Positions 10,251-22,520 of a stretch of 44,298 nucleotides of DNA are shown here, piece after piece. The notes below the pieces were generated by a model. The model searched no databases, was not told the origin of the DNA, and was given only the letters and a program-made list of their open reading frames with translations. Each line of letters starts with the position of its first letter. The first letter of the stretch is position 1. The stretch is taken from assembly GCF_000732535.1 (NCBI RefSeq), contig NZ_APNK01000030.1, positions 1 through 44,298 on the forward strand, written 5' to 3'. The stretch is from Salinisphaera hydrothermalis C41B8. GTDB lineage: Bacteria; Pseudomonadota; Gammaproteobacteria; Nevskiales; Salinisphaeraceae. Made by a program: the position numbers and the translations under genes.

Positions 10251-10520
10251 AGGGACTGTTGCCGTTTCGTGCGCGCGCCGCGTTGGAGACCGCAAATCGT
10301 GTCCGGCAAGGCGCGAGTCGCCGCGTCGTGGCGTGCCACGACCCAGACTCGCAACGCCGAAGGGCGCGATTTGCGGCCCAACCCTTCGGGACAAGCGCTG
10401 TTTTGCGGCAATACAGCGTTATAGCTCTCTCGCGTAGGCCCACTACGCCGCGTTCGCTACGCCTCGTCTTGCCGCAAAACAGCACTTGGCGCGGACGCGC
10501 ACGAAACGGCAACAGTCCCT
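10251..10520 (+). repeat. Structured inverted-repeat element, copy A
   Basis: This 270-bp element has perfect 23-bp terminal inverted repeats (10251-10273 and 10498-10520), beginning AGGGACTGTTGCCGTTTCGT. Inside are nested stems: CCGCAAATCG at 10290-10299 pairs with 10367-10376; within it GCGAGTC at 10313-10319 pairs with 10346-10352; and within that GTCGTGGC/GCCACGAC form a hairpin at 10325-10342. A second arm pairs 10393-10410 with 10470-10487 (17 of 18). The predicted fold is a stem with two arms. The element carries no gene. It is related to copies B (inverted), C and D. Flanking dinucleotides are TA on the left and TG on the right, close to a TA target duplication. It separates the DUF945 gene from the phosphorylase gene. 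Confidence 0.85.
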
Positions 10521-10700
10521 GGAGCCTATTCCAATAGGACGGCGTGGACTGCGGCGCCCGGTGAACCGAGCCGGCCGGTCTGGTATGTATTTTGGTTCTA
10601 TTGAGCGTAGACCCGCACCTTCACACCCTTGCACCAAACTGGAGCATCGCCCCTTGGCCACGCACCACCCGCATGCTCGAGTTCAGAACAGGTTGATGCC

Positions 10701-12425
10701 ATGACCGACCGTGTCCGAGGCGCCACGCCCGATGAAGCCAAACGGGAACTCTTCATCGAATGGCTCGCGCCGCTCTACGGCGACGGCGCCGCTCGCGACT
10801 GCATCGAGGCGATGACCGAATCGGCCCGCCGCCACGGCCTGCCGCGCGACACCGGCCTGGTGGTCGATCAATCGTTGAACCTGATGATCACCTACCCCGA
10901 CATCGTCCAGCGACCGGGCGAAGCGCCCCTGGCCACGCTGCGCGATTTCATTGCCCAGAACATCGGCGATGCCATCACCGCCGTGCATATCCTGCCGTTC
11001 TTTCCGCACAGTTCGGACGAAGGCTTTTCGGTGATGAACTATCGCGAGGTCAATCCCGAATTCGGCGACTGGGGCGACATTGCCGCGCTCGCCGAGGACA
11101 AGCCGCTGATGTTCGATCTCGTGCTCAACCATGCTTCGCGCAAGGGCGTTTGGTTCGCCCACTACCTCGCCGATGCCGACCCGGGCCGCGATTACTTCAT
11201 CGAAGTGGACCCGAGCGCGGACCTGCGCTCGGTGGTCCGGCCGCGGGCGACCCCGCTGCTGGCCGAGGTGGTCACGGCCCGGGGGACGAAACATCTCTGG
11301 GCGACTTTCTCGGACGACCAGATAGACCTCGACTTCGCCAATCCACAGGTACTGAACGAATTCGTCGACATCATCTTCGAATATGTCGCCCGCGGCGCAC
11401 GCCTGCTGCGCCTCGACGCCGTGGCCTTCCTGTGGAAGGAGGTCGGCACCCCCTGCATCCATCTGTGGCAGACCCATCGGGTGATCAAGTTCTTCCGCGC
11501 GGTCCTCGAGTATTACGCGCCGGGGCTGCAGCTGATCACCGAAACCAACGTCCCGCACGCCGAGAATATTTCCTATCTCACCGATGGCGATGAAGCCCAC
11601 GTCGCCTATCAGTTCGTGCTGCCGCCGCTGGCCGCTTATACCCTGCTCACCGGCGAGGCCACGCGCCTGACGGAATGGGCCTCGAGCCTGCCGCCGCTGC
11701 CGCCCGGGTGTCATTTTCTCAATTTCACCGCCAGTCACGACGGCATCGGCCTGCGCTCGGTGGAAACCATCCTGTCCGACGCCGAGCGCGATGTCCTGGT
11801 CGAGACCACGCGCGAACGCGGCGGCTTCGTCTCGACCCGCGCCATGTCGGATGGCAGCACGCGGCCCTACGAACTCAACATCACCTACTACGACCTGCTC
11901 GGCGCGCCCGCGGAACGCGACAGCACGACCCATATCGATCGATTCGTCGTCAGCCAGGCGATCGCCATGGCGCTGGCCGGCATACCGGCGCTGTATTTCC
12001 ACAGCCTGGTCGGCACCCACAACGATCTGGAAGGCGTCGAGGCCTCCGGCCACAGCCGCTCCATCAACCGGCGCCGCTACGATCTCGGCGAGATCAACTA
12101 TCAGCTCAGCATCGATTCGCCGCATGCCCGCGTGCTGGCGCGCCTCAAGCGGCTGCTGGTAGTCCGCGCTCGCCAGCCCGCGTTCCACCCCGACGCGGCC
12201 CAGTCGATCGTCGACCTGGGCCCGTCTTTGTTCGCCGTGCAGCGCACCACGCGCGATCAGACCCTCCTCGCCCTGCACAACGTCACCGACAAACCGGTGA
12301 AAGTGCCGGGCCACATGCTTCCGGAAGCGCGTGTACGCCGCAACGTAACGGCCGGCACCCAGATCAGCGGCGCCCAGCGCACGATCTCTCTGGCGCCTTA
12401 TGAAATCGCCTGGATCAGCGACTGA
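10701..12425 (+). CDS. GH13 phosphorylase, probable glucosylglycerate phosphorylase
   Basis: This protein belongs to the sucrose-phosphorylase branch of glycoside hydrolase family 13 (subfamily 18). Those enzymes use phosphate to split alpha-glucosides into glucose-1-phosphate. The expected catalytic residues are visible: nucleophile Asp239 in RLDA, acid/base Glu281 in ITETN, and Asp347 in ASHDG. Length is 574 residues from the ATG at 10701, which matches the family's N-terminus; an upstream in-frame start at 10629 adds nothing recognisable. Sequence alone does not fix the acceptor. The adjacent glucosyl-3-phosphoglycerate synthase and phosphatase genes make glucosylglycerate (known substrate of some family members, including the E. 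coli YcjM type) more likely than sucrose. CCTATT/AATAGG, an interrupted palindrome at 10524-10537, lies in the 180-bp upstream region. Confidence 0.8.
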   Translation: MTDRVRGATPDEAKRELFIEWLAPLYGDGAARDCIEAMTESARRHGLPRDTGLVVDQSLNLMITYPDIVQRPGEAPLATLRDFIAQNIGDAITAVHILPFFPHSSDEGFSVMNYREVNPEFGDWGDIAALAEDKPLMFDLVLNHASRKGVWFAHYLADADPGRDYFIEVDPSADLRSVVRPRATPLLAEVVTARGTKHLWATFSDDQIDLDFANPQVLNEFVDIIFEYVARGARLLRLDAVAFLWKEVGTPCIHLWQTHRVIKFFRAVLEYYAPGLQLITETNVPHAENISYLTDGDEAHVAYQFVLPPLAAYTLLTGEATRLTEWASSLPPLPPGCHFLNFTASHDGIGLRSVETILSDAERDVLVETTRERGGFVSTRAMSDGSTRPYELNITYYDLLGAPAERDSTTHIDRFVVSQAIAMALAGIPALYFHSLVGTHNDLEGVEASGHSRSINRRRYDLGEINYQLSIDSPHARVLARLKRLLVVRARQPAFHPDAAQSIVDLGPSLFAVQRTTRDQTLLALHNVTDKPVKVPGHMLPEARVRRNVTAGTQISGAQRTISLAPYEIAWISD

Positions 12426-12440
12426 ACGCCGCGCGGCCGA

Positions 12441-12881
12441 TCAACGAAACAGATAGGCCGCGATGAATCGTCGCTGCGGCCGATCGGGCTGACCGAGCCA
12501 GATGATCTTCGAGGATTTCGGGCCCATGGCCCGCTGGCCCTGATTGACCACGAGCGCGCCCACGGCCTGGTCGGACGACGGCGTCATCAGGCTCACCAGG
12601 CTCTCGCCGGAACAGTCGTGCGGCTTGCAGCCCGACAGCACGGCATAGTCGGCGCCTTCGATGGTGATGCGCGAAACCGGCGTCTCGGTGCCCATCGAAC
12701 TCACCCAGCCGTGTTGTGCCTGGATCGGCGCCACCAGGTTGTCGTATTGCGTCTTGAGCGCTGGCTTGCTCTTGAGGAGCTGGCTCGGATAAAGCGCATC
12801 CGAACCGGAACCGGCGGCGAAAGCGGCCGGCATCGCAAGCACGGCTCCCACAAACAGACTGGCGGACACGAAACGGCGCAT
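12441..12881 (-). CDS. ivy: Ivy-family lysozyme inhibitor, periplasmic
   Basis: Small secreted protein that by family would bind and block C-type lysozyme, protecting peptidoglycan. The diagnostic CKPHDC motif is present at residues 85-90. In E. coli Ivy this disulfide-flanked loop carries the histidine that enters the lysozyme active site. A signal peptide (MRRFVSASLFVGAVLAMPAAFA) precedes a mature part of about 124 residues. The start at 12881 is preferred because AGGAG lies six bases upstream; an in-frame start at 12908 lacks this. The gene lies 146 bp downstream of the GT81 synthase and converges with the phosphorylase gene, 15 bp away. No functional tie to osmolyte metabolism is evident. 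Confidence 0.85.
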   Translation of the reverse strand: MRRFVSASLFVGAVLAMPAAFAAGSGSDALYPSQLLKSKPALKTQYDNLVAPIQAQHGWVSSMGTETPVSRITIEGADYAVLSGCKPHDCSGESLVSLMTPSSDQAVGALVVNQGQRAMGPKSSKIIWLGQPDRPQRRFIAAYLFR

Positions 12882-13027
12882 GGGCAACTCCTGATCGACA
12901 CGATTCAATCCCGGGCTCAGTCGACGCCACGCCGCGATTCAACCGCGCGAGCGCCGGCTCGGCCCGGCTCAGGGCTCCAGAATACGCGAAGGTCCCGTCA
13001 CCGCGGACACACTCTGGCGTCCGACAC

Positions 13028-14260
13028 CTACCGACGCTTGCCGACCGCCTCGTCGTGATCGGCCTCGACGGCGTCGTAGAAGTGATCCAGAAAATCCGGA
13101 AACGCCGCGCGTACGCGATTCCAGGTCGGCATGAACGGCACCTCCATCGGATTCGCCAGGTATTCCTCGCCCGCATTGATGATGGATTCGACGAACACCT
13201 CGACCGTTTTCTCCTCCTTGTGCCGATCGAGCGTCAGGCCGTTGATCTGGGCATCGAAATAGAACCGTTCGACCGCATCGAGCGCGTTGCGCAGATACAC
13301 CGCCTTGATGGTGCGAATAGTTTCCGGATTCATGGTCACGCCGTAAGTCGCGAGCTTGCGATACAACGCCTTGGCGATGTCCGCGCTCATCTTGGCCAGG
13401 CCGTTGTTGGCCTCGTGCGTGGAGACGTCCTGATGCTTGTGATCATAGCGATCGGCGATATCCACCTGGCAGACCGCGTTCGGGCCGTAGGTGCGATGCA
13501 CTTCGGCGAGGATGCCCACCTCCAGCCCCCAGTCGCTGGGAATACGGATCGATTCGGCCACCGACGCGCTCATGGCGCACTCGCCGGACAACGGATAGCG
13601 GAAGCTGTCCATATAGTCGAGATAGTCCATATGGCCGATCACGGTGGTCAATGCGCGCAGGATCGGCGTCATGAACAGCCGCACCACCCGGCCGTTGATC
13701 GAGCCCTCGGCCACCCGTGCGTAGTAACCCTTGGCGAACTTGTAGGTAAAGTTCGGATGCACCATCGGATAGAACAGCCGCGCGAGCAGGTCGCGGCTGT
13801 AGGTACGGATATCGCAGTCGTGCATGGCGAGCACGCGCCCGCGCCCGGAGGCGAGGAAATACCCCATGCAATTCCAGACGTTCGCGCCCTTGCCCGGCCG
13901 CGCCGGCGCCAGCCCTTCGCTGTCCAGCTGGTCATAGAGCGATTGCAGGCGCGGACCGTCGTTCCAGAGCAGGCGATGGCGCGGGCCAAGGCCGCTGAAG
14001 AAATCGTGGGCATGGGCGTACTGCTCTGCGCTGGCGCCGTCCAGGCCGATGATGATCTCGGACAGATAATCGACGTCGGCCAGGGCCTCGACGATGGCCG
14101 GCAGCGCATCGCCTTCGAGTTCCGAATATAAACACGGCAGGATCAGCGACATCGGCCGCCGTCGCGAATATTTGGCGAGCTCGCTTTCCAGATCGTCGAT
14201 CGGCCGCTCGTACAGACGATGCAGCGTGGTGATGATGCCGTTCTGATGAAAATCAGCCAT
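13028..14260 (-). CDS. gpgS: Glucosyl-3-phosphoglycerate synthase (GT81)
   Basis: This cytoplasmic glycosyltransferase would transfer glucose from a nucleotide sugar to 3-phosphoglycerate, the first step of glucosylglycerate synthesis. The GT-A nucleotide-binding start SLILPCLYSELEG, the PGKGANVWN motif and the metal-binding HDCDIRTYSRDLL are in the order expected for GpgS/MpgS-like retaining enzymes. Later conserved blocks include YPLSGECAMS, DWGLEVGILAEV and HKHQD. Length is 410 residues. The start has GGAGG six bases upstream. The phosphatase gene lies 47 bp upstream on the same strand, so the pair is probably one operon. Mannosyl-3-phosphoglycerate synthase is the main alternative; the glucose-specific phosphorylase next door favours the glucosyl reading. 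Confidence 0.85.
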   Translation of the reverse strand: MADFHQNGIITTLHRLYERPIDDLESELAKYSRRRPMSLILPCLYSELEGDALPAIVEALADVDYLSEIIIGLDGASAEQYAHAHDFFSGLGPRHRLLWNDGPRLQSLYDQLDSEGLAPARPGKGANVWNCMGYFLASGRGRVLAMHDCDIRTYSRDLLARLFYPMVHPNFTYKFAKGYYARVAEGSINGRVVRLFMTPILRALTTVIGHMDYLDYMDSFRYPLSGECAMSASVAESIRIPSDWGLEVGILAEVHRTYGPNAVCQVDIADRYDHKHQDVSTHEANNGLAKMSADIAKALYRKLATYGVTMNPETIRTIKAVYLRNALDAVERFYFDAQINGLTLDRHKEEKTVEVFVESIINAGEEYLANPMEVPFMPTWNRVRAAFPDFLDHFYDAVEADHDEAVGKRR

Positions 14261-14307
14261 GCCTGTCCTCCTCGTCCGATTCGCGGCTGGGCTGGGCGCG
14301 CTGCGGA

Positions 14308-15153
14308 CTAGATTTCGTTGTTGTCGATCATCGCCTCGACGGCCGCGGCCCAGCCGGCCGGGCCGATGCCCGGCGCATGACGAATCGACCCACCCGCCGG
14401 CGCCTGATAGCTGCCGTCGGGACGAGCCACCCAGTAGCCGATGTCGGCCGCAGCCAGCATGTCGGCGTCGTTGGCAGAGTCTCCCAACGCAATCGCAAGA
14501 ATCGGGCCGTGCACCGCGGCAAAGCGCTGCTTGAGCCAGTTCAGGGCATCGCCCTTGTCGGCATGGCCGAGCAGATGCACGAAGCGCCCCCCCCGGCGGG
14601 TGGTGAATCCGGCCTCCTCGACCCGCGCGGCGAAATCCCGCTCGGCAGCCTCGCTGTCCTGCCAGAGCAAGGGCTCCGATGCATCGCGGGTCCGCGCGGC
14701 AGCCGCCGCCTCGCGATCCAGACCGGTGGCCTCGACCACATCGTCGACGGTCATATCGCCGAAACCGACGTAGCGATAGCCCTGCCTCTCGCGCAAGGCA
14801 ACGGCGAGCGCGCGCAGCTCGCGCCGGTCGGCGCCCAGCGTGCTCACGACCAGATCATCCGGATCCGGCGCGCCGGACGGCTCGAAATAGCCCCGCGGTA
14901 CCGCGACCACCCCACCGTTCTCGGCCGCGAACGGTGCGTCGTTGCCGAGCTGGCGACGTAACACCCGGATCTCGGCGGCCGTCTTGCTGGTACACAAGCA
15001 TACGGGCACCCCGCGTGCGGCCAGCGCGGCCAGCGCACCGGCCGCCGGCGACCAGTCGTAGCTGTCGTGGTCCAGCAGCGTGGCGTCGAGATCGGTAAAA
15101 ACCACGGGGTGAGCACGCGATTCGGACATACGACGAAAAAATACGGAAACCAT
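14308..15153 (-). CDS. gpgP: Glucosyl/mannosyl-3-phosphoglycerate phosphatase (HAD)
   Basis: HAD-superfamily phosphatase of the mannosyl-3-phosphoglycerate phosphatase (YedP/MpgP) type. It would remove the 3-phosphate from glucosyl-3-phosphoglycerate to release glucosylglycerate. Motif I reads FTDLDATLLD (Ala where many HADs have Gly). Motif II is the CTSKTAAEI stretch. The cap-domain region AENGGVVAVPRGYF and the motif IV region IALGDSANDADML are intact. Length is 281 residues from 15153; an ATG at 15129 (MSESRAHP) gives 273 residues and fits the family start better, but neither start has a clear ribosome-binding site. The first start lies only 9 bp from repeat copy B, so any promoter must be inside or beyond that repeat. 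Confidence 0.83.
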   Translation of the reverse strand: MVSVFFRRMSESRAHPVVFTDLDATLLDHDSYDWSPAAGALAALAARGVPVCLCTSKTAAEIRVLRRQLGNDAPFAAENGGVVAVPRGYFEPSGAPDPDDLVVSTLGADRRELRALAVALRERQGYRYVGFGDMTVDDVVEATGLDREAAAAARTRDASEPLLWQDSEAAERDFAARVEEAGFTTRRGGRFVHLLGHADKGDALNWLKQRFAAVHGPILAIALGDSANDADMLAAADIGYWVARPDGSYQAPAGGSIRHAPGIGPAGWAAAVEAMIDNNEI

Positions 15154-15162
15154 GGATTCAGT

Positions 15163-15449
15163 CTAGGGTCTGTTGAGGTTTCGTGGGAGTCCGCGCCAAG
15201 CGCTGCTTTGCGCCAAGGCGAGGCGCCAGCAAGTGCTGCGTAGTCGCTCTACACAAGCGCGCTGCAACGCGGTATTGCCGCCCATATTCCATTTTTGGGG
15301 AGCCCCTGTCCCAAAGGGTTGGGCTTCAAATCGCCTCAGCCGGCGTTGCAAATCTTGATCATGTCGCGCCACGACCGGCGACTCGCGCCTTGCCGGCCAC
15401 GATTTGCCCGCGCCAACGCGGACTCGCACGAAACCTCAACAGACCCTAG
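15163..15449 (-). repeat. Structured inverted-repeat element, copy B (inverted)
   Basis: This 287-bp element has 29-bp terminal inverted repeats with one mismatch (15163-15191 and 15421-15449); the conserved part starts AGGGTCTGTTGAGGTTTCGT. Its interior matches the reverse complement of copy A over most of its length, with a divergent centre (about 15275-15310) containing GGGGAGCCCC. Both ends are flanked by TA next to the GGG/CCC termini, consistent with a TA target duplication. It fills nearly the whole gap between the phosphatase gene (starts 15153, leftward) and the response-regulator gene (starts 15480, rightward), leaving 9 and 30 bp. Both genes must therefore be transcribed from within or across it. 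Confidence 0.85.
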
Positions 15450-15479
15450 AATCGGCGCAACAACGTCGGAATCTGCCCC

Positions 15480-16160
15480 ATGCGCATACTCGTCATCGAG
15501 GACAACGAAGACCTCGCGGCCAACATCATCGAATTTTTGTCGGTCCGGGGACATGTGGTCGACAGCGCCACCGACGGTGTCACCGGCCTTCATCTGGCCG
15601 TGGTCCACAACTTCGACGCCATCGTGCTCGATCTCATGCTGCCCGGCATCGACGGGCTCGCGCTGTGCGATCGTCTGCGCGGCGAAGCCGACAAGCAGAC
15701 CCCGATTCTGATGCTCACCGCGCGCGACACCATCGACGACAAGCTGGCCGGCTTCGCCTCCGGCGCGGACGACTACCTGATCAAGCCGTTTTCGCTGCTC
15801 GAACTGGAAGCCCGTCTGGCGGCCCTGGGCAATCGCGGGCCCCGGCGCAGTACCCACCAGCTCAAGGCCGGCGAGCTGTCGCTGAACCTCGATACCTGGC
15901 AGGCCGAACGCGAAGGCCAGCAGCTCTCGCTCACCCCCACGGCCCTGCGGTTGCTGGAGGTTCTGCTACGGGCCTCGCCGAAACTGGTTCGCCGCGCCGA
16001 ACTCGAAGCCGCGATCTGGGGCGACCATCCGCCGGACTCCGAGGCGCTACGCACGCATATTCATGCGCTGCGGGCGGCAATCGACAAACCGTTCGCCAAG
16101 GCCATGCTGCAGACCGTGCCGACCATGGGATACCGGCTGATCGATCCGGATGGCTCCTAG
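15480..16160 (+). CDS. OmpR-family response regulator
   Basis: DNA-binding response regulator of 226 residues. The receiver domain (about 1-120) has the acidic pocket EDNED at 7-11, phospho-acceptor Asp51 in LDLMLPG, the conserved LTARD threonine, and the lysine in IKPFS. A winged-helix output domain (about 130-222) follows, with the typical LTPTALRLLEVLLRASPKLV and TVPTMGYRLI segments. The stop overlaps the start of the kinase gene by 11 bp, so the two are co-translated. The target genes are unknown. Only 30 bp separate it from repeat copy B, beyond which the glucosylglycerate synthesis genes diverge, so they are natural but unproven targets. Confidence 0.9.
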   Translation: MRILVIEDNEDLAANIIEFLSVRGHVVDSATDGVTGLHLAVVHNFDAIVLDLMLPGIDGLALCDRLRGEADKQTPILMLTARDTIDDKLAGFASGADDYLIKPFSLLELEARLAALGNRGPRRSTHQLKAGELSLNLDTWQAEREGQQLSLTPTALRLLEVLLRASPKLVRRAELEAAIWGDHPPDSEALRTHIHALRAAIDKPFAKAMLQTVPTMGYRLIDPDGS

Positions 16161-17442
16161 ACACAGACTGCGCCGGCTGCTTCGAACGCCCTGGGACAGC
16201 CTGCAGTTCCGCGTGGCGTTTGCACTGGCGATGTTCGTGGCGGTCGTGGTGAGCACCGTCATGCTGGCGCTGTTCACCATCAACACGCGTCTCAAGACCG
16301 ATCTGCTCAACGCCATCGTGGCCAACGAGATGTCGGAACTGGTCGAGGATTATCCGACCCAGGGCGCGGACGCGATCCCGCACTCGGCCAATCTGATCGG
16401 CTATGTCGTAACGCCGGCCCAGCGCAACCAACTGCCCGAGCCACTGCGCGGGCTGGGGCCGAACGTCAAGGGCGTCACGCTGACGTACAACAACCACACC
16501 TATCGGGTGGGCACGCACGCGCTCGGCGATAATAAACAGGTGTATCTCGCCTACGACATCACGGCGATCGAGAGTCGCGAGTCGTTGTTCAAGCTGATCG
16601 CCATCGTGGCCGCGATCCTGGTTCTGATCCTGGCCGTGCCGCTGGGCGCCTGGATCGCCCGCATCAGCCTCAAGCCCATCAACGCCCTCGCCGAACATGT
16701 GGCCAACCTGCATCCCGGTGAACGCACCGCCCGGCTGGCCGAACAATTCGAGCATTACGAAGTCGGCGTGATCGCCCACGCGTTTGATCGTTTCATGAGC
16801 CGGCTGGATGAATTCGTCGAACGCGAGCGCAGCTTCACCGCAGACGCCAGCCATGAACTCCGTACGCCGCTGGCCGTGATTCAGGGCGCGGTCGAGGTCC
16901 TGCAACAGGACCCGAAGCTTGTCGAAAGCGGGCCGCTGACGCGCATCGATCGAGCCTCGCACCAGATGGCCGAGCTGATCGAGGCCTTGTTGTTCCTGGC
17001 CCGCGATGAACAGGCCGAGGCCGATGGCGCCGCGCCGTCGTGCCGGGCCGACCAGGTCGTCAGCGAAGTAGTGGATGCCTATCGCCCGCTCATGGCGCGC
17101 AAAACGGTCGAAGTCAGCGCGCTCGACCCCTGCGAGATCGGCGCGCCGCGCATCGCGCTTGTCATCGCCTTCGGCAATCTACTGCGTAACGCCTTGCGCC
17201 ACGGGGGCGACGAGATCCGCGTCACCCTGGCCGATCGACGCCTGACGGTCGCCGACAACGGCGACGGTATGACCACCGAAGAACTACAGCACGCCTTCGA
17301 ACGGGGTTATCGCTCGGGCCCGGGCGCCGGGCTCGGCCTTGGGCTGTATCTGGTCAAGCGCGTGGCCGACCGCTACGACTGGCGCATCCGCTTGGCCAGT
17401 CGGCCCGAGGAAGGCACCCGAATCGAACTGCAGCTCGCCTGA
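16150..17442 (+). CDS. Membrane sensor histidine kinase
   Basis: Inner-membrane sensor, 430 residues. Two membrane spans (about 21-45 and 152-173) enclose a periplasmic sensor region of about 105 residues with no domain I can name. A HAMP-like linker (about 174-226) follows. The dimerisation/phospho-acceptor helix has His235 in SHELRTPL. The catalytic ATPase domain shows the N box NLLRNALRHGG, the G1 box VADNGDGM and the G2 box GLGLGLYLVKR. It overlaps the response-regulator gene by 11 bp and would phosphorylate it. The stimulus is unknown; envelope or osmotic stress is a guess from the neighbourhood. About 137 bp without a gene separate it from the next gene. Confidence 0.9.
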   Translation: MAPRHRLRRLLRTPWDSLQFRVAFALAMFVAVVVSTVMLALFTINTRLKTDLLNAIVANEMSELVEDYPTQGADAIPHSANLIGYVVTPAQRNQLPEPLRGLGPNVKGVTLTYNNHTYRVGTHALGDNKQVYLAYDITAIESRESLFKLIAIVAAILVLILAVPLGAWIARISLKPINALAEHVANLHPGERTARLAEQFEHYEVGVIAHAFDRFMSRLDEFVERERSFTADASHELRTPLAVIQGAVEVLQQDPKLVESGPLTRIDRASHQMAELIEALLFLARDEQAEADGAAPSCRADQVVSEVVDAYRPLMARKTVEVSALDPCEIGAPRIALVIAFGNLLRNALRHGGDEIRVTLADRRLTVADNGDGMTTEELQHAFERGYRSGPGAGLGLGLYLVKRVADRYDWRIRLASRPEEGTRIELQLA

Positions 17443-17579
17443 ATCGCCGGGCGCGGCCCGTCGGTGTTTGTCGCGATCGACGCCGGATGCGGCCCGGTTT
17501 AATCTCGGCTTGATATATTGCTGACAGCGTATGCAGGCGGCGCTGGGCATCCTACGTTTTTTCCCGATCAGAACGACCC

Positions 17580-18698
17580 GTGAGCCAGAAGCGCGCAGCA
17601 CAATCCGCAGGTTTCGGCGCGGCCGGCAAGCGCTGGCGGCGCAACAATCGCCGTCGTTTCAATCGTTTCCTGGCGCGTCTGCTGGGCACGCCGGAAGCCC
17701 GCCGTCGCCCGCTGGCACCCGATACCCGTCGCATTCTCGTAGTACGGCTCAATAAGCGGCTCGGCAATATCCTGTTTCTGACCCCGATGCTGCGCAGTCT
17801 CGCGGCAACCCTGCCCGAGGCGCGCATCGACGTGGTCATCCAGAGCCCGGCCCAGGCTCGACTGCTCCAGAGCTTGCCCGGCATCGGCCGGATCTGGATT
17901 CAGGAGAACCGCGTGTTAGCGGTGCTGCGCCTGCTGCGCAACCTGCGCGCCCAACGCTACGATCTCGTCATCGACCCCACCGGCAACTCGGCGAGCAACC
18001 GCATCGGCGTGGCCCTGGTCCGCACCCGCCAGCGCATGGGGTTCGCCAAGACCGACCAGTGGCTGCCGCTTACGCATGCATCGGGCAAAACCAAGAGTCG
18101 CCACCAGGCGTTACAGGCGGTGGAATTGTTGACCGGCTCGATCTCGGAACCGCCGGTCACCACCTTCGATACGCTGGCCGTGTTTCCCGATGCCGACGAC
18201 CAGCGCGCCGCCGACGCACGCTGGCAGGCGGTGCTCGGCGCGCGGGCCCACGGCGCGCCGGTCATCGGTTTTTTCAGCCGCGCGACCGGACGCAAGGCGC
18301 TGCCGCGTCATTGGTGGCAAGCCTGGATCCTGGAAGTGCGTCGCACCGTACCGCAGGCCGTCCTGCTCGAGATATTACCGAGCGAGGATGCCGCGCCCGT
18401 GGTGCCTGAAATCGCGCATGTCGCGATCAAGCCGTTGACCGAGCTGGCCGCGCTGATGTCGCGCCTGGATCAGTTCGTTGCCGCCGACAGCGGCCCCATG
18501 CATCTGGCCGCGGCCTCGGGCACCCCTGTGATCGGCCTGTTCCGGGCGACCCTGCCGAGCGACTACGCGCCGCTGGGTCAGGACTGCGAAACCGTCGACG
18601 GCGATGGGCTCAAGCCGGAGCACGTGGCAGCCCGGCTGTCCGAGCGCCTGGCCCGGCGCGAACGCGCCCATCCACGGTTCAGCGGATTGCGCTCGTAA
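17580..18698 (+). CDS. GT9 glycosyltransferase (heptosyltransferase-like)
   Basis: Glycosyltransferase family 9 protein, related to the enzymes that add heptose to the lipopolysaccharide inner core. The N-terminal domain starts at about residue 50 with ILVVRLNKRLGNILFLTPML, the acceptor-binding GT-B fold of WaaC/WaaF/WaaQ. The C-terminal donor-binding motif FVAADSGPMHLAAASGTPVIG is intact. A basic stretch of about 45 residues (rich in Arg) precedes the fold and may touch the membrane. The only sensible start is GTG at 17580; it lacks a strong ribosome-binding site. AT-rich sequence around 17508-17520 (TTGATATATTG) could hold a promoter. The 3' end overlaps the oppositely oriented cyclotransferase-like gene by 20 bp. 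The exact sugar is unknown. Confidence 0.8.
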   Translation: MSQKRAAQSAGFGAAGKRWRRNNRRRFNRFLARLLGTPEARRRPLAPDTRRILVVRLNKRLGNILFLTPMLRSLAATLPEARIDVVIQSPAQARLLQSLPGIGRIWIQENRVLAVLRLLRNLRAQRYDLVIDPTGNSASNRIGVALVRTRQRMGFAKTDQWLPLTHASGKTKSRHQALQAVELLTGSISEPPVTTFDTLAVFPDADDQRAADARWQAVLGARAHGAPVIGFFSRATGRKALPRHWWQAWILEVRRTVPQAVLLEILPSEDAAPVVPEIAHVAIKPLTELAALMSRLDQFVAADSGPMHLAAASGTPVIGLFRATLPSDYAPLGQDCETVDGDGLKPEHVAARLSERLARRERAHPRFSGLRS

Positions 18699-19200
18699 CG
18701 TTTGCAGGGATCTCGTCGAGAATCACTCGATTCTCGGCGGCACGCTCGGCATTCGGATCGGGGACGGTCGGGACCTTGGCCAACCCGTCGATCCAATGCG
18801 GCGGCAGCCCGTGCTCGGCGGCGCCGGTCACGACGAAATCGCGATACCAGTCGAACGGCGTGAGCGCATCGTCGAGCCAGTCAGCGCGGCCACGATAGAT
18901 CGCCGCGGTGGCCTGCCCCGTAGCATGGCCCGTGGTCAGCTCGAGAAAATCGTAGGCCGGCCCCTCGGCGGCATGCAACCGATCCAGTCGCGCCGGGTCC
19001 AGTTCGAACAGCACGCCGTATACCCGGTCGCCCGGATCGCCGGTTTCCACCACATTGCACTTGCCCGACCCATCATTGCCCACCAGGTGCCAGTGCAGTC
19101 GATGACCTGACAGCCAGGCCGGCCCGACCGGGGCAACGCTGGGCACGCGCCGGGCCAGACGGGCAGTACACATGTTTGAACCGTAGGCGAAGTAATACAT
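18679..19200 (-). CDS. Gamma-glutamylcyclotransferase-like protein
   Basis: Protein of 173 residues with the AIG2/GGCT fold. The N-terminal YYFAYGSNM forms the substrate-binding loop, and the glutamate in HAAEGPAYDF fits the catalytic acid of gamma-glutamylcyclotransferases, which release 5-oxoproline from gamma-glutamyl amino acids. Many bacterial homologues are uncharacterised, so the exact substrate is open. It is transcribed leftwards, diverging from glycerate kinase with 124 bp between starts, and its last 20 bp overlap the end of the GT9 gene. Confidence 0.82.
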   Translation of the reverse strand: MYYFAYGSNMCTARLARRVPSVAPVGPAWLSGHRLHWHLVGNDGSGKCNVVETGDPGDRVYGVLFELDPARLDRLHAAEGPAYDFLELTTGHATGQATAAIYRGRADWLDDALTPFDWYRDFVVTGAAEHGLPPHWIDGLAKVPTVPDPNAERAAENRVILDEIPANVTSAIR

Positions 19201-19324
19201 GACGAGTGTCGATTGAGGCCAGTATCCGGCCGATGTCGTAGGATGAGGTAAACCCTACACCAAACCACACGCCGACCCGGGACCACTGTGATTGCAGCAG
19301 CCTCGCCGGCGAAAGAGATCAGGT

Positions 19325-20449
19325 ATGGCCGAGAATACCGTCGTCATCGCTCCCGACAGCTTCAAGGGCAGCTTGTCGGCCAGCGATGTCGCCAAGGCGC
19401 TCGCCGAGGGGCTGGCTGCCCACGACAATCCGCCGCGCACCGAAATCGCGCCCATGGCGGACGGTGGTGAAGGGCTACTGGATGCGGTGGCCACCACCTG
19501 CAAGGGCCACTGGCACACCACCACGCTGGTCGGCATCCATGGCCGTTCGCTCGAGGCGCCCTGGTACGCCATGGCGGACGGGCCCGCCGTGCTCGAGTCG
19601 GCTACGGTGCTGGGGCTGCCGCTGATCGAGGCCATGGACGACGCACCGCCGCTGGCCGAACGCAGCAGCTATGCGCTCGGCACGCTGATCGCCGATGCGT
19701 TGGACTCCGGCGCCACCGATCTGGCCATTGGCCTGGGCGGCAGCGCCTGCAACGACGCCGGGCTCGGCATGCTGGCCGCACTGGGCGCGGTCCCCTATGA
19801 CAACGCCGGACAGGTCATCGCACCGAGCATGAACGGCCTGCTTTCGCTGGCTCGAATCGACTTGTCCGGACTGGATTCACGCTTGGCGAATGTCCGGTTG
19901 CGCGCACTGTGCGACGTGGATAACCCGCTGCTCGGCGAAGCCGGTGCCAGCCGGATCTACGGCCCACAAAAAGGTCTGACCGACGCCGATATCGCCAAAG
20001 TCGAAGCCGCGTTCGAGCATCTGGCCGAGACCACCGGCGCGCGCGACAAGACCGAATGGCCCGGCAGCGGTGCCGCTGGCGGGCTCGGCTTTGCTCTGGC
20101 GCTCATCGGTGCCCGGCTCGAATCCGGCGCGGAAGCCGTGCTCCGGATGACCGGGTTGGCCGAGCGTATGGCCAACGCCCGCTGTGTGATCACCGGCGAA
20201 GGCCGCTCCGACCGCCAGACCCTATCCGGCAAGCTCCCGCTGGCAGTCGCCAAGGCCGCCCGTCCGACCCCCACACTGCTCGTCTGCGGCGACATCGCCG
20301 ACGATGCACGCGACGAACTGGCCACTTATTTCGCGCGCACTTACACGCTGGTCGAGCGGGCCGGCAGCGTCGAGGCGGCGATCGCCGAACCGGCGCGCTG
20401 GCTGTTCGAGATCGGCGCCGATCTGGTGGACACCATCAACGATCTTTAG
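19325..20449 (+). CDS. Glycerate kinase (GarK/GlxK type)
   Basis: Phosphorylates D-glycerate with ATP, giving 2-phosphoglycerate in the GarK/GlxK-type family, and so feeds lower glycolysis. The family start VVIAPDSFKGSLSASDVAKA is clear, followed by MADGGEGLLDA, the glycine-rich IGLGGSACNDAGLGMLAALG, and SGAAGGLGFAL. GEGRSDRQTLSGKLP near the C-terminus is also typical. The chosen ATG at 19325 begins directly at the family N-terminus (374 residues) with AGG close upstream. The gene diverges from the cyclotransferase-like gene. Glycerate is a product expected from the glucosylglycerate phosphorylase encoded 7-9 kb upstream, so the two could act in one recycling pathway. Confidence 0.93.
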   Translation: MAENTVVIAPDSFKGSLSASDVAKALAEGLAAHDNPPRTEIAPMADGGEGLLDAVATTCKGHWHTTTLVGIHGRSLEAPWYAMADGPAVLESATVLGLPLIEAMDDAPPLAERSSYALGTLIADALDSGATDLAIGLGGSACNDAGLGMLAALGAVPYDNAGQVIAPSMNGLLSLARIDLSGLDSRLANVRLRALCDVDNPLLGEAGASRIYGPQKGLTDADIAKVEAAFEHLAETTGARDKTEWPGSGAAGGLGFALALIGARLESGAEAVLRMTGLAERMANARCVITGEGRSDRQTLSGKLPLAVAKAARPTPTLLVCGDIADDARDELATYFARTYTLVERAGSVEAAIAEPARWLFEIGADLVDTINDL

Positions 20450-20616
20450 GGCCCCGCTGCCTTGGGCCCGCCGCTGGATCAAAGGCGATCCGGCCGGCCA
20501 AACCCAAGCACCCGTGAAATCTCGAGCGGCTGAGGCGGCACAGGCCGTTTCTGGGCGACATTCGTCGGGTGCTGCCCTATCATGGCCGCGCTCGCCCCAT
20601 AGACCGGAGACTGGCC

Positions 20617-21570
20617 ATGCTGCGCAGCTTTGCCATCAACCACGGCCGTATCGTCGAAGATCGTTCGCAGGACACACCGTTGGCTAAGCGGTTGTCGCAT
20701 GCCCACTGGATCGACGCGCTTGAGGCCGATGAGGCCGAGCGCGCCGAACTGACCCGGTTTCTCACCGACGAACTCCCCGAAGACGAAGACGTTGAAGAAA
20801 TCGAGGCCTCGGCCCGTTACTTCGTCGACCCCGACGGCATTCACGTGCATTCGCTGTTCCTGTCGCAAAGTGAGGGACGGCACGACACCGAAACCGTGGC
20901 CTTCATCCTGCAACCGGAACGCCTGATCACGCTGCGCGACGACGACCTGGCCGATTTCCGCCTGCTGCGCATGCGCGCGCGAGCCGGGCAGGTCGAGGTC
21001 GACTCGCCCGAGTCGCTTCTGGTCACGATCTTCGACCAGAAGGTGGAAAACCTGGCCGATACGGTCGAGGATATCCATCTCGATCTGGAAAAAGTCAGCC
21101 ATACGGTGCTCGAGGACGAAGAGGCCGACTACGAGGGCGCCATCGACGCCCTCGCCAAGCTCGAAGACTCCTCCGGCAAGATCCGGCTTTGCCTGATGGA
21201 TACCCAGCGTTCGATCTCGTTCATATTGCGGCACCTGCCGGCGCGGGCCCCCGAACGCGAAATGGCACGCGAAATCCTGTCCGACGTGGAAACGCTGATG
21301 AGCCATATCGCGTTTCTGTTCGACAAGATCAACTTCCTGATGGACTCGACCGTGAGCTTCATCAACATCGAGCAGAATCAGATCATCAAGATCTTCTCGA
21401 TCGCGGCCGTCGTCTTTCTGCCGCCCACGCTCGTGGCGAGCATCTACGGCATGAACTTCCAGCACATGCCCGAACTGTCATGGCACTATGGTTACCCGAT
21501 GGCGATCGGACTCATGGTCGCCGCGGGTATCGCGCCGTATCTGTACTTCAAGCACAAGAACTGGCTCTAG
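20617..21570 (+). CDS. corA: CorA-family magnesium/cobalt channel
   Basis: Pentameric inner-membrane Mg2+ channel. The large cytoplasmic N-terminal domain (about 1-255) contains long helices. Two C-terminal membrane helices follow, the first ending in the selectivity motif YGMNF. Length is 317 residues from the ATG at 20617, which has GGAGA six bases upstream and matches the family start. The stop codon TAG (21568-21570) lies inside the left terminal repeat of repeat copy C, so the last bases of the coding frame are part of that element. The C-terminal sequence YLYFKHKNWL still looks like a normal CorA tail. Confidence 0.92.
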   Translation: MLRSFAINHGRIVEDRSQDTPLAKRLSHAHWIDALEADEAERAELTRFLTDELPEDEDVEEIEASARYFVDPDGIHVHSLFLSQSEGRHDTETVAFILQPERLITLRDDDLADFRLLRMRARAGQVEVDSPESLLVTIFDQKVENLADTVEDIHLDLEKVSHTVLEDEEADYEGAIDALAKLEDSSGKIRLCLMDTQRSISFILRHLPARAPEREMAREILSDVETLMSHIAFLFDKINFLMDSTVSFINIEQNQIIKIFSIAAVVFLPPTLVASIYGMNFQHMPELSWHYGYPMAIGLMVAAGIAPYLYFKHKNWL

Positions 21571-21840
21571 GGCGTGTTGAGGTTTCGTGCGAGCGCCGCG
21601 TTGGCGTCCGCAAATCGTGACCGGCAAGGCGCGAGTCGCCGCGTCGTGGCGTGGCACGACCCAGACTCGCAACGCCGCCGGGCGGGATTTGCGGCCCAAC
21701 CCTTCGGGACAAGCGCTGTTTTACGGCAATCCAGCGTTATAGCTCTCTCGCGTAGGATGACTACGCCACGTTCGCTACGCCTCGTCTTGCCGCAAAACAG
21801 CGCTTGGCGCGGACCCGCACGAAACCTCAACACGCCCTAG
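21567..21840 (+). repeat. Structured inverted-repeat element, copy C
   Basis: This 274-bp element has perfect 25-bp terminal inverted repeats (21567-21591 and 21816-21840), reading CT then AGGGCGTGTTGAGGTTTCGT. It has the same orientation and internal plan as copy A. An arm pairs 21711-21728 with 21788-21805 (17 of 18), and the GCGAGTC...GACTCGC stem encloses a GTCGTGGC-type hairpin with one change. Both ends carry TA next to the GGG/CCC termini. It starts inside the last codons of corA and provides that gene's stop codon. Confidence 0.87.
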
Positions 21841-21846
21841 GGATTT

Positions 21847-22196
21847 CGCGCTGTAGCGCGACCCCCTTTCATTTGCTTGTCCAAACGAACGGAAGCAAAG
21901 GAAAGGACACCCTACCTTGCGCCGATGCTACGCATCGGTGCCCTGCGCGGCTCCGGCCGCAAGAGGGACAGCCGCGAAACTCGCGCTGCTACGCAGCACT
22001 CAGACACACGGCTGTCTTTTTCCTCTTGCGCCCTCCACTGCTCGGCGCTGCGCTCAAGGGGACCCGAATACAGACACGGCCCGCGAAGGTTGGGCGTTCG
22101 CGCCTGTGTTCGAGCCCGTCTGAGGCGACGCCGACGCACAGCGGCGAGGAGTATCCGGCACATGCGCCGGTGCGGCCAGCCTGTCTGAGCGTCGCC
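21847..22196. ncRNA. Hairpin-rich non-coding region (candidate structured RNA)
   Basis: No credible protein is encoded in 21841-22344, but at least six base-paired units follow one another. CGCGCT/AGCGCG lies at 21847-21860. A 13-bp stem (one mismatch) pairs 21866-21878 with 21893-21905. CCGATGC/GCATCGG at 21922-21938 has a TAC loop. A long stem pairs 21958-21973 with 22010-22030 (16 pairs, five-T bulge) around GCTGC/GCAGC, also with a TAC loop. 22065-22073 pairs with 22104-22112 around CGCGAA/TTCGCG. 22124-22131 pairs with 22189-22196. The strand is unknown. It could be an RNA gene or part of a larger repeat. 22197-22344 shows nothing I recognise. Confidence 0.45.
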
Positions 22197-22344
22197 AAAA
22201 CGACGCGAGTTCTGACCGCATGCCGTCGTCGCGAGCATCAAAGTGACTCGCACATATCAGTGCGAAACTAAAGCCTGACTCGCCCCAGGGCTCCAAAGAT
22301 CCGCGACCGAACCGGAACCGGCACGTGCACTTTGCAAGCGCCCC

Positions 22345-22520
22345 AGGGTCTGTTGAGGTTTGGTGCGAGCGCCGCGTTGGCGTCCGCAAATCGTGTCCGG
22401 CAAGGCGTGAGTCGCCGGCTCTGGGCGTGCCACGACCCAGACTCGCAACGCCGCCGCGCGCCCCTGGTTAATTTTCAGGGAGCGCTTGGCGCGGACTCGC
22501 ACTAAGCCTCAACAGACCCT
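22345..22520 (+). repeat. Structured inverted-repeat element, copy D (internally deleted)
   Basis: This 176-bp copy has 25-bp terminal inverted repeats with two mismatches (22345-22369 and 22496-22520), starting AGGGTCTGTTGAGGTTTGGT. The left half matches copies A and C closely through the GACTCGCAACGCCG stretch. About 95 bp of the right arm are missing and replaced by a short sequence containing CCCTG...CAGGG. The two TIR mismatches would be G-U pairs in plus-strand RNA. Flanking dinucleotides are CA on the left and TA on the right. It lies 74 bp from the end of mlaA. Confidence 0.8.

What the first reader, a model, noticed from the sequence alone, without database searches (positions are those of the whole stretch)
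10251..22520. Repeat family whose terminal arms differ between copies yet stay complementary within each copy
The four copies (10251-10520, 15163-15449, 21567-21840, 22345-22520) start AGGGACTGTTGCCGTTTCGT, AGGGTCTGTTGAGGTTTCGT, AGGGCGTGTTGAGGTTTCGT and AGGGTCTGTTGAGGTTTGGT. Copies A and C have arms that pair perfectly (23 and 25 bp) despite different sequences, and B has one mismatch in 29. Paired changes in both arms suggest either selection for a long stem (as RNA or cruciform DNA) or copying of one arm from the other during transposition. In either case this is not passive decay.
Basis: seen in the sequence. Interest (0 to 1): 0.8.

Follow-up and report, generated by a model that had tools for sequence, protein, structure and literature searches.

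The report
Mobile DNA repeats with matched ends
These are small non-coding mobile DNA elements, probably moved by a related jumping gene in the same bacterium, and their two end signals change together while the rest of the element changes independently, as if one end were copied onto the other.

Summary
The four copies belong to a MITE-like family of a Salinisphaera genome (105+105 ends found, 67 copies assembled; 63 of these are 267-310 nt). Their outer 16-17 bp match the terminal inverted repeats (TIRs) of a resident ISPa67-like IS5-family insertion sequence.
Arm positions 4, 5, 11 and 12 agree between the two ends in 66, 63, 65 and 66 of 67 copies (37-55 expected). Positions 17, 20 and 21 of the same palindrome agree only as often as chance. 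On a tree of interiors, end types change as often as shuffled labels (17 versus 17.0); three of six well-supported sister pairs differ at both ends, every copy staying matched.
Coupling also exceeds expectation in G004, G012 and G015 and is absent in Salinisphaera sp. Q1T1-3. In G012 it reaches positions 20 and 23, partly through a subfamily.
My best explanation is concerted evolution of the TIRs by end-to-end copying, with a precedent in another IS5-family element. The main rival is shuffling of interiors between copies with ends left in place.

The parts
10252..10519 (+). MITE copy A, 268 nt, both ends GGGACTGTTGCCG; arms 10252-10275 and 10496-10519
   Evidence: closest kin by interior is L013 with CG/AG ends (99/89)
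15166..15446 (-). MITE copy B, 281 nt, both ends GGGTCTGTTGAGG; divergent interior; flanked by CTA and TAG
21570..21837 (+). MITE copy C, 268 nt, both ends GGGCGTGTTGAGG; flanked by CTA and TAG
22346..22519 (+). MITE copy D, 174-nt deletion derivative, both ends GGGTCTGTTGAGG
10252..10267 (+). TIR (16 nt) of copy A, left end; partner 10504-10519 on the other strand
   Evidence: length taken from the TIR shared with the IS in L172/L173
21570..21585 (+). TIR (16 nt) of copy C, left end; partner 21822-21837; same TIR as the IS in L173

Best explanation
The repeats are MITEs: short, non-coding elements with the TIRs of a resident IS5-family (ISPa67-like) insertion sequence, inserted mostly at TA/CTAG-like sites and presumably moved in trans by its transposase (inferred, not shown). 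The two TIRs of one element evolve together. When one end changes, the change is copied to the other end, most likely by conversion between the two TIRs (TIR-TIR recombination, or repair of the end-to-end junction or folded strand during transposition). Later mutations then hit the ends singly. Shown: the family, the shared TIR, the coupling of the outer positions in this genome, and its independence of the interior. Inferred: mobilisation in trans, and the copying step.
For: Positions 4, 5, 11 and 12 are concordant in 66, 63, 65 and 66 of 67 copies (permutation means 39.2, 37.1, 54.3, 55.0); positions 17, 20 and 21 in 55, 50 and 54 of 67 (means 53.5, 51.0, 54.7). Left and right 4-5 are associated at z 22.8 (61 copies), while left 4-5 has p of at least 0.07 with every interior site tested; it is associated with 11-12 of both arms. 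Rare variants at positions 1-16 sit in both arms 5 times against 0.17 expected (two of the five are one shared allele in window A and L118, two are in the single copy L007b); at 17-24, 0 times. On the interior tree end types need 17 changes, shuffled mean 17.0; of six starred sister pairs, three (L084/L088, window A/L013, L007b/L107) differ at both ends with each copy matched and three have the same ends; L018/L109 (97/79, not starred) also differ at both ends. Independent pairs on starred branches go the same way in 5.0 of 5, 4.8 of 5, 3.0 of 3 and 4.0 of 4 at positions 4, 5, 11 and 12, and in 0.5 of 3, 0 of 2, 0 of 4 and 2.0 of 4 at 17, 20, 21 and 23. The IS in L172/L173 shares CTAG plus the TIR; no stretch shared with any of the 67 copies is longer than 19 nt; its transposase is IS5 family. 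Precedent: TIR-TIR recombination that abolished TIR asymmetry in the IS5-family element ISWpi1 (PMC3004938, passages).
Against: No copying event is seen directly. In Q1T1-3 the ends are uncoupled (position 5: 15 of 34, 15.0 expected; 30 of 30 loci of a second draw, positions 4, 5 and 12: 21, 20 and 17 against 20.5, 17.0 and 14.1) although an IS with 92%-identical transposase is present. In G012 positions 20 (17 of 35) and 23 (34 of 35) are associated as well, p 0.0002 and below, so the TIR limit is not clean there; a subfamily of about nine copies contributes. Position 23 is mildly coupled here (58 of 67, mean 52.4, p 0.0008). Four of 67 copies have unmatched 4-5 (L077, L081, L089, L100), as have IS copies L171, L211, L212 and L223. 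MITEPsy1 moves with clearly unequal outer TIR bases (PMC3189936, passages). Interiors are near linkage equilibrium, so exchange of interiors could mimic changes of ends. Sign tests on starred branches cannot reach 0.05 with five pairs.
Confidence: 0.48

Rival explanations
1. Ends stay with the insertion site; interiors are shuffled between copies by gene conversion. The outermost bases are insulated because strand exchange needs homology on both sides, so matched ends simply record the element that first inserted.
For: Interiors are near linkage equilibrium, and the inserted modules (mod117, mod165, mod259) occur with both main end types, CG and TC. In this genome coupling fades about where minimal recombination homology would begin (inference).
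Against: Left 4-5 shows no association with the sites tested 13-46 bp away (17, 20, 21, 23, 36-38, 51) although several interior pairs within 35 bp do. L018/L109 share six rare variants out to right-arm position 19 but differ at positions 5-6 of both arms, and at five other places. Both-arm alleles confined in this genome to one copy exist: L109's (listing cut part way through G004) and L007b's (one similar end in G013). In Q1T1-3 the ends are reshuffled, so ends are not insulated there. It does not explain how matched alleles arose.
Confidence: 0.3
2. Transposase specificity: several related transposases each need their own matched pair of ends, and selection at transposition keeps the pair matched.
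For: Positions 11-12 track the IS lineage: AG in the IS copies of this genome, AG/AT in that of Q1T1-3, CC in those of G009 and G011. By my reading, 16 of 20 IS copies with both ends visible have matched 4-5 and 19 of 20 matched 11-12.
Against: Q1T1-3 carries many mixed-end copies; TA lies on both sides in 17 of 34 there against 42 of 67 here, so they look like real insertions. Both-arm alleles found in single copies can hardly each have a transposase (inference).
Confidence: 0.13
3. Selection for a long RNA stem or cruciform.
For: Outer helix 98.9% paired, with 47 double-change cells against 9.3 shuffled. Whole copies fold at -118 to -180 kcal/mol, without a shuffle control. A small inner hairpin has compensatory changes in two copies. 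In G012 the association reaches position 23.
Against: Positions 17-24 of the same stem are 90.7% paired, with 10, 14 and 12 of 63 broken at 17, 20 and 21. Coupling is absent in Q1T1-3. No Rfam match in the window at gathering thresholds.
Confidence: 0.08

Closest known systems
ISPa67-like IS5-family insertion sequences (NF033580 transpos_IS5_3)
   Same: CTAG-like target, about 16-bp TIR of the form GG(G)NNTGTTGNN(G/A)TTT, variable NN matched between ends in 16 of 20 copies read
   Different: The repeats here carry no transposase; no stretch longer than 19 nt is shared with the resident IS
ISWpi1 (IS5 family, Wolbachia), TIR-TIR recombination (PMC3004938, passages read)
   Same: Recombination between an element's two TIRs can make them identical
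   Different: Reported there as inversions at 2 of 22 loci; here it is a family-wide signature and no inversion was demonstrated
MITEPsy1, IS5-like MITE of Pseudomonas syringae (PMC3189936, passages read)
   Same: Non-coding, 18-nt TIR, inserts after CTAG or YTAA
   Different: 100 nt; the ends of its six copies are identical from copy to copy, but its left and right TIRs differ in the outer bases
Correia/NEMIS, ERIC and similar palindromic repeats (recalled, not compared)
   Same: Genome-wide hairpin-forming repeats of 100-300 bp
   Different: Different ends and targets as I recall them; no Rfam family matched the window

Membership tests
MITE | Short, no room for a transposase gene | tested here: met
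   The 67 copies are 116-310 nt
MITE | TIRs shared with an autonomous element in the genome | tested here: met
   L172, L173: CTAGGGCGTGTTGAGGTTTC, 20 nt, 100% complementary between ends
MITE | High copy number | tested here: met
   105+105 ends, 67 assembled
MITE | Target site duplication | tested here: inconclusive
   TA on both sides in 42 of 67, CTA and TAG in 25 of 67; no clean canonical empty site found
MITE | Mobilisation in trans | not testable with these tools
   Needs a transposition assay
IS5 family (the partner IS) | DDE transposase of the family | tested here: met
   NF033580 257.7 bits, cut-off 110; PF13340 and PF01609 over cut-off
Described structured RNA family | Match to a described RNA family | tested here: not met
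   0 Rfam matches in the window at gathering threshold
Stem under selection | Coupling along the whole stem | tested here: not met
   In this genome coupled at 4-12, not at 17, 20, 21; in G012 also at 20 and 23

The most novel reading that the evidence does not exclude
The end pair behaves as an exchangeable cassette: transposition or repair routinely copies one roughly 16-bp end onto the other, so an element can switch the identity of both ends together while keeping its interior. This would be a general route by which bacterial transposon ends co-evolve without passing through a long-lived mismatched state.
Probability: 0.24. Interest if true: 0.72.

Novelty: new member of a known kind. Interest (0 to 1): 0.46.

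Why it matters
How the two ends of a DNA transposon stay alike while the transposase drifts is usually taken as given. Here dozens of copies in one genome separate three things that are normally confounded: shared descent, stem pairing and TIR function. In this genome the coupling follows the TIR best. Uncoupled relatives in Q1T1-3 give a natural contrast, so the question becomes testable in a laboratory transposition assay.

Tried and rejected
RNA-family identity: no Rfam match in the window. tRNA: none. Viral contigs: no exact end match. An autonomous element among long end pairs: the four pairs over 400 bp have a second end with 4-5 mismatches and, by my reading of their frames, no transposase; the partner IS came from family searches. 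End dinucleotides reset at each transposition: rejected, since five of six P. avellanae IS copies are identical, the sixth differs at 7 places, and all six have TC at both ends. Same-site comparison: one own/G012 pair (L007/L147) has different ends, matched within each copy, but independent insertion at the same CTAG is not excluded; the L089/L124 alignment was not informative. Paper searches, by listing unless said: Salinisphaera+MITE gave one unrelated paper; Salinisphaera+insertion sequence+transposase two unrelated; the palindrome search none; ISPa67 four passing mentions; some searches gave the two papers of which I read passages. Rows dropped: four of 67 copies under 250 nt were left out of the alignments of 63; B and L077 (the latter with unmatched TC/CG ends) were also left out of the 61-copy LD and tree analyses; the 67-copy counts include them all. 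Of 100 distinct-end places listed not every one could be paired; one search lists unpaired ends. For G015, 10 of 15 loci had both ends; one of the ten (L148) has a doubtful left end. In G013 two rows (L266, L275) look misplaced and were kept.

Full report
What is there. The four copies of the finding are real. They belong to a dispersed family in a 4.28-Mb, 91-contig genome whose genus is Salinisphaera. The 41 stretches with exact end matches in the named genome collection are all from Salinisphaera records, and a Q1T1-3 copy is found at 100% in G013, which the tool lists as the same genus as the window. The end pattern occurs 105 times on each strand within three mismatches (100 places listed), with no match of the reversed control. 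From the fetched loci I assembled 67 copies of this genome with both ends. Of these, 63 are 267-310 nt and four are 116-174 nt. Of 17 genomes of the family, 14 have the ends within two mismatches.

What kind of element. TA lies on both sides in 42 of 67 copies, and CTA plus TAG in 25 of 67. Some elements abut with only one or two bases (TA, TG or T) between their GGG/CCC ends. The same genome carries an insertion sequence of about 860 bp (L172, L173; L171 with altered, unequal ends). Its ends are CTAG followed by the same 16-17 bp; no stretch shared with the 67 copies is longer than 19 nt. Its 267-aa transposase is IS5 family (NF033580, 257.7 bits, cut-off 110; PF13340 and PF01609), and one plasmid relative is annotated ISPa67. 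The repeats therefore look like MITEs that depend on this kind of transposase. That dependence is inferred.

The coupling. Over 67 copies, arm positions 4, 5, 11 and 12 are concordant in 66, 63, 65 and 66, against permutation means of 39.2, 37.1, 54.3 and 55.0. Positions 17, 20 and 21 are concordant in 55, 50 and 54, as expected by chance; position 23 is mildly coupled (58 against 52.4, p 0.0008). On the alignment of 63 copies the outer 16 pairs are 98.9% paired with 47 double-change cells (9.3 shuffled), while pairs 17-24 are 90.7% paired. In this genome, then, the coupling follows the TIR better than the palindrome.

It is not explained by descent of the interior. Left 4-5 and right 4-5 are almost fully associated (z 22.8, 61 copies). 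Left 4-5 is also associated with 11-12 of both arms, but with no interior site tested (lowest p 0.07). On an interior tree of 61 copies the end types need 17 changes, the shuffled mean being 17.0; branches with strong support force at least 5 for the main type. Independent pairs on starred branches go the same way at both ends in 5.0 of 5, 4.8 of 5, 3.0 of 3 and 4.0 of 4 for positions 4, 5, 11 and 12, and in 0.5 of 3, 0 of 2, 0 of 4 and 2.0 of 4 for 17, 20, 21 and 23. Of six starred sister pairs three (L084/L088, window A/L013, L007b/L107) differ at both ends while each copy is matched, and three have equal ends; L018/L109 (97/79) also differ. L018 and L109 share six rare variants, out to right-arm position 19, and differ at positions 5 and 6 of both arms and at five other places. 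Rare variants at positions 1-16 occur in both arms of one copy 5 times (0.17 expected) against 21 single-arm cases; at positions 17-24, 0 times against 18. Four of 67 copies have unmatched 4-5.

Other genomes. In G012, positions 4, 11 and 12 are concordant in 31, 34 and 35 of 35 (26.4, 29.4, 27.9 expected; p 0.011, 0.0006 and below 0.0002). There positions 20 and 23 are associated too (17 and 34 of 35, against 9.5 and 22.1), which I read as partly due to a subfamily of about nine copies with its own inner arms. In G004, 21 end pairs read from a cut listing agree at 4-5 in 19 (10.3 expected). In G015, position 5 agrees in 9 of 10 (6.2 expected). In Q1T1-3 there is no coupling: 15 of 34 at position 5 (15.0 expected, a sample chosen by one exact end), and 21, 20 and 17 of 30 at positions 4, 5 and 12 in a second draw (20.5, 17.0 and 14.1 expected). 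Its IS, 92% identical in protein, has itself unequal ends at position 12.

IS relatives. By my reading, 16 of 20 IS copies with both ends visible have matched 4-5 (types TC, GC, CC and CG), and 19 of 20 have matched 11-12. Copies with only one end visible, and further near-identical copies, were not counted. In P. avellanae five of six copies are identical, the sixth differs at 7 places, and all six are TC/TC, so the end type is inherited through transposition and is not reset.

Mechanism. The best-supported account is concerted evolution of the two TIRs by copying between them. A published case in an IS5-family element shows TIR-TIR recombination that abolished the TIR asymmetry, with TIRs of only 23 bp (PMC3004938, passages). 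Against a need for it, MITEPsy1 transposes although its two TIRs differ in the outer bases (PMC3189936, passages). The strongest rival is that interiors are exchanged between copies while the ends stay put; the near linkage equilibrium of the interior keeps it alive. Stem selection is disfavoured by positions 17-21 in this genome and by Q1T1-3, but G012 keeps it from being excluded. Transposase specificity is disfavoured by the mixed ends of Q1T1-3.

Novelty. The family is a new member of a known kind (MITE with IS5-type ends). I found no description of it in the searches, which cover open-licence papers only. The coupling of the ends, decoupled from the interior, is the unusual part.

Noticed in passing
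L085:724-780: A roughly 50-bp CTAG-flanked piece made almost only of two facing TIRs, a minimal derivative of the family.
   Followed up: no
L219:1500-1775 (Azotobacter chroococcum plasmid pAcX50f): A related MITE of about 275 bp with TC/TC ends; query positions 1-144 match at 71%, in another genus.
   Followed up: partly
L084, L093, L095, L100; also L220:18600-20400: Elements abut with only one or two bases between them; two IS5 copies on a P. avellanae plasmid share one CTAG.
   Followed up: partly
alignment A2 columns 151-153 and 220-223: A loop triplet occurs as GAA (41 of 61 by column) or as its reverse complement TTC (19), and a hairpin loop has many four-base types, as if loops were inversion or mutation hot spots.
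   Followed up: no
alignment A2 columns 212-230, L073 and L074: A small inner hairpin is replaced by another sequence that still mostly pairs, including compensatory changes.
   Followed up: no
window 20569-21580: Copy C begins at the stop codon of a CorA-like gene: the TAG stop is part of the CTAG target.
   Followed up: no
L011, L012, L100, L151, L165: A different repeat of about 135 bp lies beside several copies in two genomes.
   Followed up: no
L007:2194-2461 and L147:2270-2290: Copy L007b sits at a site that is empty in G012, but its flanks lack the usual TA, so the insertion is non-canonical or its borders were changed.
   Followed up: no
G012 loci L139, L141, L155, L157, L159, L161, L162, L166, L168: A subfamily with its own inner arms (left GTACACGTG, right mostly GTCCGCGTC), which carries much of the association at position 23.
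   Followed up: partly
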